Assembly: GCF_001417775.1 (NCBI RefSeq)
Contig: NZ_BBZJ01000028.1
Location: 62,001 to 126,000 of the forward strand
Source: Streptomyces sp. TP-A0356
GTDB taxonomy: Bacteria > Actinomycetota > Actinomycetes > Streptomycetales > Streptomycetaceae
Reading direction: 5' to 3'
Length of the DNA: 64,000 bases
Position numbers and translations under genes: made by a program
The notes under the pieces: model-generated
Seen by the model: only the letters and a program-made list of their open reading frames with translations
Told to the model about the DNA's origin: nothing
Databases searched by the model: none
Shown: in pieces, positions 1 to 43,252 of the stretch
How positions within the stretch are numbered: position 1 is the first letter of the stretch
Layout: each line of letters opens with the position of its first letter

Positions 1-630
1 GGCCGAGGGGTCCTGCAGGCCGAACTCCGGGGCCGCGAAACCCCGCCACAGCGCGCAGTGGACCAGCAGCCGGTCCGGCTGACGCGGCAGCCGCCGGGCC
101 CGCTCGTACGTCGCCCGCGCGCTCGGCGTGCGCAGGGCGCCCAGATACGCGCGGGCCAGCGGAACCACCAGCCGGCGGGCACGGTCCGGGCGTCCCATCA
201 CCTCGTGGCAGAACCAGCGCGTCAGCGCGTTGCGGGGCGTGAAGCCCGCCGGGTCGACCAGGACCAGCGCGGTGACCGACCCCGCGTGGCGGCCCTCGGC
301 CAGGCGGCAGGCCACATAGCCGCCGACACTGTTGCCGAGCAGGGCGAGGCGGTGCACACCGTGGTCGGACGCCAGCGCGTCCAGGACCGCCTCCGCCGCC
401 TCCACCAGCCCTTCCGGGGTGACCCCTTGGGGGTTGGGCGCCGTCGACTCGCCGTAGCCCGGCCAGTCGAGCACGAAGGTGCGGTGGCGGTCCGCGAGGG
501 CGGGCAGGACGGCGTCGTAGTCCCGGCCGTCGCCGGGGTTGGCGTGCAGGAGCAGCAGCGCGGGGGCCTCGGGGGCGCCGTACGCGCGTATTGCGATGTC
601 GCCGAATGGGGTGGGCACGGTGATCCGCAT
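1..630 (-). CDS. alpha/beta hydrolase (C-terminus outside window)
   Basis: The frame is open from an ATG at 630 to the left edge, giving 210 visible residues and no stop, so the C-terminus is missing. The product looks like a small alpha/beta-fold hydrolase. After the first strand there is an HANPGDG oxyanion-type loop, then a LDWPGYGES turn, and the nucleophile elbow LLGNSVGGY with the presumed catalytic Ser. The acid and histidine would lie at or beyond the edge. It follows gcl on the same strand, but a strong hairpin at 692-717 separates them, so it is probably its own unit. Substrate cannot be predicted. Confidence 0.85.
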   Translation of the reverse strand, partial: MRITVPTPFGDIAIRAYGAPEAPALLLLHANPGDGRDYDAVLPALADRHRTFVLDWPGYGESTAPNPQGVTPEGLVEAAEAVLDALASDHGVHRLALLGNSVGGYVACRLAEGRHAGSVTALVLVDPAGFTPRNALTRWFCHEVMGRPDRARRLVVPLARAYLGALRTPSARATYERARRLPRQPDRLLVHCALWRGFAAPEFGLQDPSA

Positions 631-14160: not shown

Positions 14161-15006
14161 TCAGTGTGTGGAGAGCATGCCTTCGCGCAGGCGCGCGAGG
14201 GTGCGGGAGAGCAGGCGGGAGACATGCATCTGGGAGATGCCGAGGCGTTCGCCGATCTGGGCCTGGGTGAGCTCCTCGACGAACCGCCAGTGGATGATCT
14301 GCCGGTCCCGCTCGTCGAGGTCGGCGATCATCGGTGCCAGGGCGTGGAAGTCCTCCACCAGCTCAAGGGCGGCGTCGTCGGTGCCGATGAAGTCGGCCAG
14401 CACGGTCTCGCCCTCCTCGCTGCTGTTGATGGCGGCGTCCAGGGACGAGGAGTTGTAGCCGTTGGAGGCCAGCCTGGCCTCGATCACCTCCTCCTCGGAC
14501 AGGCACATCAGCTCGGCCAGCTCCTTGACCGTGGGCGTACGTCCCAGGCGGCCGCCGAGCTCCTCGGTGGCGCGGGCGAGCTGCACCCGGGCTTCCTGCA
14601 GGCGCCGCGGTACATGCACGGCCCAGGAGGTGTCACGGAAGAACCGCTTGATCTCGCCGACGATGTAGGGCACGGCGAACGAGGTGAACTCCACCTCCCG
14701 TGAGAGCTCGAACCGGTCGATCGCCTTGATCAGGCCGATCATGCCGACCTGGACGATGTCCTCCATCTCCTCCGGCCCTCGGCTGCGGAACCGCGCAGCC
14801 GCGAAGCGGACCAGGGACATGTTCATCTCGATCAGCGTGTTGCGTGCGTACTGGAACTCGGGCGTGCCCTCCTCCAGCACCGTCAACCGGTCGAAGAACT
14901 GCTTCGACAGCTCTCGGGCGTCCCTCGGTGCGACCGTGGACGGATCGGCGACCTCCGGCAACTCGGTCACACCCGTGTCCACCTTCGCCATCGCCATGGC
15001 CGTCAT
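14161..15006 (-). CDS. SigB/SigF-family RNA polymerase sigma factor
   Basis: A 281-residue alternative sigma factor of group 3 (stress/sporulation type). Region 2 holds DIVQVGMIGLIKAIDRF followed by FTSFAVPYIVGEIKRFFRD. Region 3 holds VPRRLQEARVQL. Region 4 holds ERLGISQMHVSRLLSRTLARL. The start is the ATG at 15006, with GGGAGGGG seven nt upstream. Such factors are usually held by an RsbW-type anti-sigma kinase; none is adjacent, though an RsbW-like ATPase lies at 29564. Which Streptomyces paralogue it is cannot be told from sequence alone. Confidence 0.92.
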   Translation of the reverse strand: MTAMAMAKVDTGVTELPEVADPSTVAPRDARELSKQFFDRLTVLEEGTPEFQYARNTLIEMNMSLVRFAAARFRSRGPEEMEDIVQVGMIGLIKAIDRFELSREVEFTSFAVPYIVGEIKRFFRDTSWAVHVPRRLQEARVQLARATEELGGRLGRTPTVKELAELMCLSEEEVIEARLASNGYNSSSLDAAINSSEEGETVLADFIGTDDAALELVEDFHALAPMIADLDERDRQIIHWRFVEELTQAQIGERLGISQMHVSRLLSRTLARLREGMLSTH

Positions 15007-15213
15007 CGCGTTCCCCTCCCAAAAGTAGCGGGCCACCGTCTCGGCCCCTGTGGGCCGATGACGCGTCTACCCCCACTCCGGACGACCATGCGCGGGAACC
15101 CACGAGGTGGCGCTTCTCGGCCAGGGTGAGGGGTCGTCGACGCTCTCAAGGAGCGCCGGCACCGGGCAGGGCCGAGCCCGGCACCGTGTACCGGCCCTGA
15201 CACCGCACCGGGC

Positions 15214-41533: not shown

Positions 41534-43036
41534 TCAGCCCGCCGTCGAGCAGCCGGCTCCGTTCACCGTGAAGGCGCGCGGTCGCGAGTTGCCACCGTGC
41601 CAGGAGGCGATGAAGCCGACGGCGAAGGTGCCGTTCGCGGCGACCTTCTTGTTGTAGTCGGCGGCCCTCGCGGTGACCTTGGGGCCGTCCTGGACGTAGG
41701 TGCCGTCCCACATCTGGGTGATGTGCTGGCCGTCCTGGAAGGTCCAGCCGATGCGCCAGTCGTCGAGCGCCCTGGTCGAGGTGACGGTGACCGTGGCCTG
41801 GAAGCCCTCCGGCCACTCGTCGACCACGTGGTACTTCACTCGGCAGGTCGACGGCCTGTCCTCGGCGGAGTGGGAGGCGGTCGGCGAGTCCTCCACCGGG
41901 CTGGTCGACTTGCCCTGCGGTTCCGTGTCGGAGTCCCCCCTGCTCGTCGCGGTCGGGCTTCCCGACCCGGCCGGGCGCGAGGTCGAGGAGGCGCCGTTGG
42001 CGCCGTTGGCCGAGGACGAACCGACGTACGTCACGGACGGTGCCGGGGCGACGACCGACCGGCGGTCGGCCGAGTCGGCGCCCGCGGTCTTCTGTCCGCC
42101 GGAGTCGCCGAGCTGCATCAGTGGGACCGTCAGCGCCAGCGCGGAGACGACGACGGCCGCGGCGAGGATCCCGGCGCGGCCGATCCGGGGCCGAGTCGCG
42201 GCGCCCGCGGCGATGCCCCGGTCCGTGCCCGCGTCCGCACGCCCGCCGGTCAGCCCGGCTTCGGCCGCCCGGCGCCGGCGCTCCAGATAGGCGAGCCCAC
42301 CCCAGCCGATCACCCCGCTCGCCAGCGCGGCGGGCGTCCCGCCGCCGTGCAGCCGCAGGCACGCCGCGGCCTCCGCGCACTCCATGCAGGTGGCGAGGTG
42401 TCGCGAGAGGTCCTCCGGAGTCTCGGCGCCGGGCGAGCGGGTGACCGCGTCGAGGAGCCGGGCGTATCGGCGGCAGACCGCGTCCATGGGCGTGTCGAGG
42501 TGGTTGCGCTGGCAAAGGCCCCGGAACAGCGCGCGCACCTGGGCGAGTTCCTCCGCGGCGGCCGTGGGGTCCAGACCGAGTCGGCGGGCCACGTCGGGCA
42601 GGGGCAGCGCCTCCACCTCCGCCAGCCACAGCAGCGCCGCGTCCGGCTCCTGCATGTCCTTCAGACCGCGCAGGGCAAGCGGCCGCTGCAGGGGCGGTCC
42701 GGTGTACCGTGCGGCCTTGCCGGAGCTGAGCCACAGCCGCAGCTCGGGGGCGAGCCGATGCCCCTTGCCCTCGGCCTCCCACGCCTCGGCGGTGGTGCGG
42801 ACGGCGGTCAGCAGCAGGGGGATCCGGGGCAGCCGCGGAGTGCGGCGGCCGGTGGCCTTCGCCCGGGCGTCGGCGGCGCGGGCCTCCTGGATGCCGTGGG
42901 TGAAGGCCTCGGCGGCCAGTTGCCTGCCGTCGGCCGAACCGGTGGTGCACAGATCGGCGTACGACAGAACCGCGTCCCAGCACTCCGAGAACAGCGCGGC
43001 CTCGGCGGCGTCCTGAGGGGTCGGCAGGTCGGGCAT
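41534..43036 (-). CDS. ECF-sigma-like / zf-HC2 / transmembrane / CBM2 fusion protein
   Basis: 500 residues from the ATG at 43036 (CAGGAG six nt upstream). Residues ~10-185 resemble a divergent ECF sigma factor: a region 2-like helix block (ALFSECWDAVLSYADLCTTG), then region 4-like LLWLAEVEALPLPDVARRLG followed by LDPTAAAEELAQVRALFRGL. His213, Cys217 and Cys220 (RHLATCMEC) are the zf-HC2 anti-sigma signature. Residues ~287-308 form one membrane helix. A Ser/Thr-rich stalk (~310-395) follows. Residues 398-496 are a family 2 carbohydrate-binding module (FQATVTVTS, WRIGWTFQDGQHITQMWDG, SWHGGNSRPRAFTVNG) with Cys398/Cys496 as the expected disulfide. Predicted topology: regulatory part inside, cellulose/chitin-type binding module outside. 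Confidence 0.82.
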   Translation of the reverse strand: MPDLPTPQDAAEAALFSECWDAVLSYADLCTTGSADGRQLAAEAFTHGIQEARAADARAKATGRRTPRLPRIPLLLTAVRTTAEAWEAEGKGHRLAPELRLWLSSGKAARYTGPPLQRPLALRGLKDMQEPDAALLWLAEVEALPLPDVARRLGLDPTAAAEELAQVRALFRGLCQRNHLDTPMDAVCRRYARLLDAVTRSPGAETPEDLSRHLATCMECAEAAACLRLHGGGTPAALASGVIGWGGLAYLERRRRAAEAGLTGGRADAGTDRGIAAGAATRPRIGRAGILAAAVVVSALALTVPLMQLGDSGGQKTAGADSADRRSVVAPAPSVTYVGSSSANGANGASSTSRPAGSGSPTATSRGDSDTEPQGKSTSPVEDSPTASHSAEDRPSTCRVKYHVVDEWPEGFQATVTVTSTRALDDWRIGWTFQDGQHITQMWDGTYVQDGPKVTARAADYNKKVAANGTFAVGFIASWHGGNSRPRAFTVNGAGCSTAG

Positions 43037-43252
43037 CGGGGGCTCCTGCATCAACTGCTTCCGCAAGCAAAGCCAACTCACCTGAGATACAGGGCAGTTG
43101 GGGGTCATCTCACGACTGGCCCAGAGCCTTTCACGGTTCCCACACAACTGACAAGCGGCGTATTCAATTGCCGTGACGAGTGGTTGCGCTCTGTTGAGTT
43201 GTACGGATCGCGGCCCCACTCCGTCTCACGGCTGGGGCACACGATTTCCCCG

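What the first reader, a model, noticed from the sequence alone, without database searches (positions are those of the whole stretch)
41534..43036. Single-polypeptide sigma-like/anti-sigma-like/CBM2 transmembrane protein: candidate one-protein polysaccharide sensor
Seen: an ECF-sigma-like N-terminus, an HxxxCxxC zinc finger (His213, Cys217, Cys220), one membrane helix, a Ser/Thr stalk and a complete CBM2 with its paired Cys. Known: in Clostridium, separate SigI and RsgI proteins use an extracellular carbohydrate-binding module on the anti-sigma factor to sense plant polysaccharides. Inference: here sensor, anti-sigma and sigma-like parts are fused, so the protein could release its N-terminus by proteolysis or act as a decoy. 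This is the best candidate in the window for an undescribed system.
Basis: partly seen in the sequence, partly recalled or inferred. Interest (0 to 1): 0.75.

Follow-up and report, generated by a model that had tools for sequence, protein, structure and literature searches.

The report
Cellulose-binding membrane sensor, altered sigma domain
A Streptomyces membrane protein joins a cellulose-binding module outside the cell to a sigma-factor-like and zinc anti-sigma domain inside; the layout is already known from the ECF52 group, but here the sigma part seems to have lost DNA- and polymerase-contact residues, so it may signal by imitating a sigma factor.

Summary
Of the 80 best orthologs fetched, 75 are full length, 4 run off contig ends, 1 ends early.

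The architecture is not undescribed. ECF52 (SCO4117) already joins sigma factor, zinc finger, membrane helix and carbohydrate-binding domain, and proteolytic release has been proposed. A profile of the window family matches SCO4117-type proteins at E 1e-32 to 3e-35.

What differs is the sigma half. No sigma model is significant for any of 58 members scanned. The acidic pair of region 2.2, a basic residue of region 2.4 and the charge of the sigma4 recognition segment are lost in the CBM2 group and its ricin-lectin paralogs, yet selection keeps the domain and all four zinc ligands are invariant in the 124 rows aligned. CBM2 and ricin proteins form one supported clade related to ECF52.

I favour a polysaccharide-responsive sigma mimic or anti-sigma protein (PhyR-like logic) over a working sigma factor; this is inference. 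An upstream footprint is conserved in orthologs and occurs once in this genome.

The parts
41534..43036 (-). Whole gene, 500 aa plus stop
   Evidence: orthologs share start and length
42761..43009 (-). sigma2-like region, residues 10-92 (helices 10-30, 34-62, 71-88)
   Evidence: model, Foldseek/VIA, profile match to SigE over residues 14-176, alignment with ECF52
42491..42682 (-). sigma4-like region, residues 119-182, with helix-turn-helix
   Evidence: VIA Z 9.7, rmsd 1.9 over 63 aa to a SigW entry; Z 9.3, rmsd 1.3 over 57 aa to a SigF entry
42347..42490 (-). Zinc anti-sigma (ZAS/ASDI)-like domain, residues 183-230; zinc ligands C188, H213, C217, C220 (metal binding inferred)
   Evidence: all four invariant in 81/81 CBM2, 21/21 ricin, 6/6 ECF52, 16/16 other family rows; spacing close to RsrA Cys11/His37/Cys41/Cys44
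42251..42346 (-). Most conserved stretch, residues 231-262 (...GVIGWGGLAYLERRRR...), candidate ASDI helix 4 / juxtamembrane segment (assignment inferred)
   Evidence: 91% mean pairwise identity, lowest dN/dS 0.106
42104..42178 (-). Membrane helix, residues 287-311
   Evidence: single hydropathy peak; net charge +5 in 252-288 and 0 in 308-335
41858..42103 (-). Low-complexity Ser/Ala/Gly/Thr stalk, residues 312-393
   Evidence: 32% identity among orthologs, dN/dS 1.07
41549..41845 (-). CBM2, residues 398-496; C398/C496 pair; aromatics W408, W443, Y461
   Evidence: Pfam E 1e-25; W408, W443, Y461 in 76 of 76
43129..43154 (-). Conserved upstream element TTGTCAGTTGTG-N7-CGTGAAA, function unknown (promoter or operator candidate)
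   Evidence: exact core with 7-nt gap in 77 of 81 upstream regions; one match at <=3 mismatches in the 8.4-Mb genome, reversed control 0
43073..43102 (-). Inverted repeat CCCAACT...GAGTTGG between element and start codon; function not tested
   Evidence: seen in the sequence, largely conserved in the upstream alignments; no Rfam match

Best explanation
A one-polypeptide surface sensor of Streptomyces, sharing ancestry with the ECF52-type fused sigma/anti-sigma membrane proteins. SHOWN by sequence and model: cytoplasmic sigma2-sigma4-like domain, ZAS-like domain with four candidate zinc ligands, one membrane helix, stalk, CBM2. SHOWN by comparison: within the clade of CBM2 and ricin-lectin proteins the sigma half has lost several residues that relatives keep in the RNA polymerase- and promoter-contact regions, while the fold and the ZAS half are conserved. 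INFERRED: at rest the ZAS domain packs on the sigma-like domain of the same chain; binding of cellulose, chitin or a similar polymer by the CBM2 changes or cleaves the protein, and the freed sigma-like/ZAS part acts by protein contact (as a sigma mimic that titrates an anti-sigma factor, or as an anti-sigma factor for another sigma) rather than as a promoter-binding sigma factor itself. The logic would resemble PhyR, with a polysaccharide-binding ectodomain as input.
For: Sigma ancestry: 7 of 7 PDB sequences hit at E<=10 are sigma factors; Foldseek/VIA; a profile from CBM2 orthologs alone finds 40 of 41 family proteins (themselves picked with the wider profile A1), the six ECF52 ones at 1e-14 to 4e-17, and 0 of 41 shuffled controls. 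Sigma models: Sigma70_r2 over its cut-off in 6 of 6 ECF52 proteins; no sigma family at E<=0.001 in 21 of 21 ricin proteins; none significant in the window protein. Contact residues: acid at 38 in 0/81 CBM2 and 0/21 ricin against 6/6 ECF52, 13/16 other family, 12/14 own-genome ECFs; acid at 39 14/81 and 0/21 against 6/6, 16/16, 14/14; basic at 88 3/81 and 2/21 against 6/6, 14/16, 13/14; acid at 163 in the recognition segment 81/81 CBM2 and 8/21 ricin against 0/6, 0/16, 0/14. Mean net charge of 70-92: +0.17 CBM2 and +1.52 ricin against +5.67 ECF52, +4.0, +4.21; of 155-176: -1.25 and -1.52 against +2, +2.06, +3.14. CBM2+ricin clade supported 100/99. Selection: median dN/dS 0.30 (sigma2), 0.30 (sigma4), 0.25 (ZAS) against 1.07 in the stalk. 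Zinc ligands invariant in all 124 family rows aligned. Precedent: PhyR's sigma-like domain has correct ECF structure but degenerate promoter and core contacts and titrates NepR (PMC8103513 passage); one of 58 members touches the PhyR model at E 0.022, not significant.
Against: No partner sigma or anti-sigma among the four neighbours examined: rsgA, a radical SAM gene, a FAD oxidoreductase and an Ada/AlkA-like gene. The charge shift is not confined to contact surfaces: sigma2 helix 1 (12-32) is acidified too (-4 against +3.5 ECF52), the ZAS control differs from ECF52 as well (-1.37 against +2.67, though little from other family, -0.69), and over the longer helix-turn-helix window 143-176 CBM2 (+0.75) is not lower than ECF52 (-0.67); ranges of single sequences overlap for 70-92 (CBM2 -3 to 3, own ECFs 1 to 7). 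Some single positions are poor guides: basic at 92 is kept in only 4/14 own ECFs, basic at 161 and 163 in 0/16 other family, basic at 91 is kept in 18/21 ricin. R168 and R172 of sigma4 (80/81, 81/81) and an acid at 43 of region 2.2 (81/81) are kept in CBM2. The structure model is only moderately confident. No experiment.
Confidence: 0.5

Rival explanations
1. A working membrane-tethered ECF52-type sigma factor: CBM2 binding triggers proteolysis, the ZAS part is removed, and the sigma domain transcribes its own regulon with a diverged promoter preference.
For: Same layout as SCO4117, where a strain making only the sigma domain is less affected than the full deletion (PMC5826349 discussion); fold and several residues kept; sigma half under purifying selection; a conserved element upstream of its own gene could be an autoregulated promoter.
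Against: Loss of the region 2.2 acidic pair, of basic residue 88 and of positive charge in 70-92 and 155-176; no significant sigma match in 58 members; the upstream element occurs once in the genome, so it defines no regulon beyond this gene.
Confidence: 0.3
2. Mainly a surface anchor or adhesin: the CBM2 holds hyphae to cellulose or chitin, and the cytoplasmic part is a vestigial membrane-insertion or scaffold domain.
For: CBM2 with conserved aromatic residues; no polysaccharide gene among the four neighbours examined; sigma contacts changed.
Against: Apart from the spacer 263-286 (34%), the cytoplasmic regions are the best conserved part (75-91% mean pairwise identity against 62% for CBM2), and all four zinc ligands are kept.
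Confidence: 0.12
3. The N-terminal helices are not sigma-derived; an all-helical domain only resembles sigma factors by chance.
For: Weak Pfam hits spread over several HTH families; no Foldseek E below 0.001; middling Z is common for helical models.
Against: Continuous sequence family up to members with Pfam-detectable sigma regions 2 and 4 and zf-HC2; tree joins them.
Confidence: 0.03

Closest known systems
ECF52 sigma factors (SCO4117 of S. coelicolor)
   Same: Fused sigma + zinc finger + membrane helix + extracellular carbohydrate-binding domain in Actinobacteria; detectable sequence homology
   Different: SCO4117-type proteins have a sigma region 2 over Pfam's cut-off (6 of 6), a Pro-rich extension and an NPCBM; the window protein has a sigma part below all cut-offs with altered contact residues, a Ser/Ala/Gly/Thr stalk and CBM2
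ECF48 / ECF53 groups
   Same: C-terminal fusion of anti-sigma-like and membrane parts; for ECF52/ECF53 also carbohydrate-related domains (PMC8999054 and PMC10766802 passages)
   Different: No member sequence could be compared here
PhyR (alphaproteobacterial anti-anti-sigma factor)
   Same: Sigma-like domain with correct fold and degenerate promoter/core contacts (PMC8103513 passage)
   Different: PhyR has a receiver domain; here ZAS, membrane helix and CBM2
SigI/RsgI of Clostridium
   Same: Substrate sensing by a membrane anti-sigma protein; carbohydrate-binding ectodomain (listing and starts of abstracts; details recalled)
   Different: Sigma and anti-sigma are separate proteins there (recalled); fused here
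Class I zinc anti-sigma domains (RsrA, ASDI)
   Same: Hx3Cx2C across helices 2-3 plus an upstream Cys ligand
   Different: No Pfam zf-HC2 match for the window protein; covalently joined to its sigma-like partner

Membership tests
ECF52 | ECF sigma domain recognised by standard models (TIGR02937) | tested here: not met
   No TIGR02937 hit at E<=10 for the window protein; 3 of 58 members hit at E<=1, best 0.099
ECF52 | Homology to SCO4117 over sigma and zinc-finger region | tested here: met
   Family profile A1 matches the six SCO4117-type proteins over about residues 9-250 at 1e-32 to 3e-35; all six have NPCBM and Sigma70_r2; for L192 the TetR and NAD(P) oxidoreductase neighbours were recognised by eye, fitting the described atrA synteny
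ECF52 | Zinc finger | tested here: met
   C188/H213/C217/C220 invariant, though Pfam zf-HC2 not hit
ECF52 | Transmembrane helix | tested here: met
ECF52 | Proline-rich extension | tested here: inconclusive
   7 Pro in 82 stalk residues; Ser/Ala/Gly dominate
ECF52 | Carbohydrate-binding domain at the C-terminus | tested here: met
   CBM2, not NPCBM
ECF52 | Transcription initiation activity | not testable with these tools
   needs biochemistry
Class I anti-sigma domain (ASDI/ZAS) | Hx3Cx2C over helices 2 and 3 | tested here: met
   H213-C217-C220 lie across model helices 208-216 and 218-227; definition from PMC7406223 passages
Class I anti-sigma domain (ASDI/ZAS) | Binds and inhibits a sigma factor | not testable with these tools
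   no experiment
PhyR | Sigma-like domain with degenerate promoter and core contacts | tested here: inconclusive
   Several contact-region residues and charges lost, some kept; sequence level only
PhyR | Receiver domain | tested here: not met
   No receiver match in the Pfam scan
SigI/RsgI | Separate sigma and anti-sigma proteins | tested here: not met
   One ORF; no sigma gene among the four neighbours examined

The most novel reading that the evidence does not exclude
A clade of Streptomyces membrane proteins in which a sigma factor fused to its own anti-sigma domain was turned into a 'pseudo-sigma' signalling device, a sigma mimic under the control of extracellular cellulose-binding or ricin-type lectin domains: PhyR-like partner switching driven directly by polysaccharide, in one polypeptide.
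Probability: 0.33. Interest if true: 0.75.

Novelty: new variant of a known kind. Interest (0 to 1): 0.5.

Why it matters
If true, it shows a sigma factor losing its job while its fold stays under selection as a signalling part (comparable with pseudokinases), and gives a direct route from polymer contact at the hypha surface to gene control in Streptomyces. It also suggests that ECF catalogues built on standard sigma models would miss this clade: no significant sigma match in 58 CBM2 members scanned or in 21 ricin paralogs.

Tried and rejected
Gene-neighbour clue to function: the radical SAM gene is found in 80 of 80 loci and rsgA in 47 of 80 (16 of the 80 loci have shortened flanks), but these say nothing about polysaccharides. 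Rfam on the upstream region: no match. Sigma70-type promoter scan: none found. Regulon search with the upstream element: only its own site. SCO4117 ortholog in the window's own genome: the NPCBM search found one hit, an alpha-galactosidase; the family profile at E<=10 gave the four known members and one noise hit; an assembly gap is possible. Papers: searches listed no description of a CBM2 or ricin clade with degenerate sigma domains in the open-access library; the ECF re-classification paper is not held and the 2015 actinobacterial survey was not seen, so prior mention there cannot be excluded. A full-length structure prediction was not run.

Domain identity and aromatic counts used 76 sequences (window plus 75 of 80 over 480 aa; dropped L100, L114, L117, L128 at contig ends and L111, which ends at 412 aa). 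Alignment A2 holds the window and 57 of the 80 loci. The tree used 10 of 81 CBM2 rows, all 21 ricin, 6 ECF52 and 16 other family rows; L195_418 was left out. The 14 own-genome ECFs are those of loci L061-L074, 14 of the 30 fetched.

Full report
What is there. The ORF window:41534-43036 on the minus strand is a 500-aa protein in an 8.4-Mb genome of 62 contigs; Streptomyces is inferred from highly similar loci in named Streptomyces. Pfam sees only CBM_2 at a significant level, residues 398-496, E 1e-25. Hydropathy gives one membrane helix at 289-307, and one peak only (threshold 1.6) in 75 of 75 orthologs over 480 aa. All four are invariant in 81 CBM2, 21 ricin, 6 ECF52 and 16 other family rows.

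Sigma fold. No sigma model is significant for the window protein or for any of the 58 aligned members; 16 of 58 touch Sigma70_r4_2 at E<=1 (best 0.007) and as many touch MarR_2. A profile of 17 sequences against PDB sequences finds 7 distinct sequences at E<=10, all sigma factors, best E 0.026, the top three aligned over sigma2 and sigma4. The AlphaFold2 model of 1-265 has mean pLDDT 64.8 and pTM 0.47, so domain packing is uncertain; its helices fall in the order expected for sigma2, sigma4 and ZAS. The top 26 Foldseek rows are all entries of sigma factors or their complexes, but none is below E 0.001. VIA gives sigma4 alone rmsd 1.9 over 63 residues to a SigW entry (Z 9.7) and 1.3 over 57 to a SigF entry (Z 9.3); the tool warns that Z below about 13 can be uninformative for helical models. 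The stronger argument is sequence continuity: a profile of CBM2 orthologs alone matches 40 of 41 family proteins (these had been picked with the wider profile A1) and 0 of 41 shuffled copies. Of ten more distant members scanned, nine have Sigma70_r2 over its cut-off, the same nine also match Sigma70_r4_2 (five of them below cut-off), and nine match zf-HC2 (two of them below cut-off).

Family and distribution. In 121 genomes of the genus, the window's own included, 40 hold a near full-length ortholog (at least 53% identity over 485 or more of 500 residues; one of these, G079, with a TGA inside the match) and 4 more match with N-terminal and CBM2 pieces in one frame; one (G003) has such pieces with a TAG inside the CBM2 match (my count). 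From named genomes the best 80 of 553 confirmed loci were kept, S. scabiei 87.22 among them; 75 of 80 are full length. The family profile hits 107 of 296 genomes of the class in 30 of 114 genera at E<=1e-5. The window's genome has three paralogs with ricin-B lectin in place of CBM2. Other members carry NPCBM, immunoglobulin-like plus ricin domains, or weak DUF11/DUF3344 matches below cut-off.

Known relative. One subgroup in other Streptomyces is the SCO4117 type: Sigma70_r2 over cut-off and NPCBM in 6 of 6; beside L192 stand a TetR-type and an NAD(P) oxidoreductase-type gene, recognised by eye, matching the described synteny with atrA. SCO4117 is the first characterised ECF52 member.

What is different. 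On a joint alignment and residue counts, the CBM2 group and the ricin paralogs lack the region 2.2 acidic pair (position 38: 0/81, 0/21; position 39: 14/81, 0/21) that ECF52 (6/6, 6/6), other family (13/16, 16/16) and own-genome ECFs (12/14, 14/14) keep; they lack basic residue 88 (3/81, 2/21 against 6/6, 14/16, 13/14); and residues 70-92 and 155-176 have lost positive charge (means +0.17 and -1.25 in CBM2 against +5.67 and +2 in ECF52). According to PMC7406223 (passages), regions 2.1-2.2 bind the RNA polymerase clamp helices. By Pfam, 21 of 21 ricin proteins show the lectin and no sigma family at E<=0.001. Results against a purely contact-directed loss: helix 12-32 is acidified too, the ZAS control is also less basic than in ECF52, the longer window 143-176 shows no loss relative to ECF52, single-sequence charge ranges overlap for 70-92, and R168, R172 and, in CBM2, an acid at 43 are kept; positions 91, 92, 161 and 163 are not clean markers. 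The tree joins the CBM2 and ricin rows in one clade (100/99) on a long branch, next to a Streptomyces ricin protein with an ordinary sigma region (L195, 96/82), then L194, then ECF52; the order inside the clade is unsure (82/40) and the program warns of long branches meeting there.

Selection. Mean pairwise identity among 76 sequences is 0.75 (sigma2), 0.79 (sigma4), 0.84 (ZAS), 0.91 (231-262), 0.34 (spacer 263-286), 0.66 (membrane helix), 0.32 (stalk) and 0.62 (CBM2). Median dN/dS over 2,814-2,815 pairs is 0.30 (sigma2), 0.30 (sigma4), 0.25 (ZAS), 0.106 (231-262), 1.07 (stalk) and 0.75 (CBM2). The sigma half is therefore changed but not decaying. The CBM2 keeps W408, W443 and Y461 in 76 of 76; that these are the usual binding-face positions is recalled, not tested.

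Mechanism. I favour signalling through a sigma-like fold that no longer starts transcription. PhyR is the precedent: correct ECF structure, degenerate promoter and core contacts, titration of an anti-sigma factor (PMC8103513 passage). Self-inhibition by the ZAS part, the polymer signal and any proteolysis are inference. An active but diverged sigma factor stays a serious rival.

Upstream element. TTGTCA[GT]TTGTG-N7-CGTGAAA begins 105-147 nt before the start codon in 77 of 81 upstream regions, always with a 7-nt gap; the other 4 have one or two changes. In the whole genome it occurs once at <=3 mismatches, and its reversed control not at all. It is not sigma70-like by the simple scan and has no Rfam match. 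It could be the gene's own promoter or an operator.

Noticed in passing
window 43129-43154 (-): A conserved element upstream of the gene, unique in the genome, with an inverted repeat CCCAACT...GAGTTGG closer to the start codon; promoter, operator or RNA element not decided.
   Followed up: partly
L007 2992-4824 and 11786-13987 (own genome, contig C15): Two ricin-lectin paralogs with degenerate sigma domains lie about 9 kb apart.
   Followed up: partly
L155 760-2559 (-), own genome contig C18: A further protein with weak sigma region 4 and zinc-finger matches and a BACON_2 match, a hydrophobic segment seen by eye, next to what looks like radA (by eye); possibly another fused sigma/anti-sigma membrane protein.
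   Followed up: no
L206 1200-4124 (-) and L208 1959-4670 (+): Family members in another actinobacterial family with Pro/acid-rich stalks, several immunoglobulin-like domains and a ricin-B domain behind ordinary sigma and zinc-finger matches.
   Followed up: partly
L195 418-1803 (-): A second family-like ORF directly beside L195_1641 in one Streptomyces, with no Pfam match at E<=0.001 and little ectodomain; the only one of 41 family proteins missed by the CBM2-only profile.
   Followed up: partly
own genome (G000): No SCO4117-type ECF52 protein was found although several other Streptomyces have one; gene loss or an assembly gap.
   Followed up: partly
window 14161-15036 (-): An ordinary sigma factor of the SigB/SigF/WhiG kind (name from recall; TIGR02937 match E 1.1e-32).
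   Followed up: no
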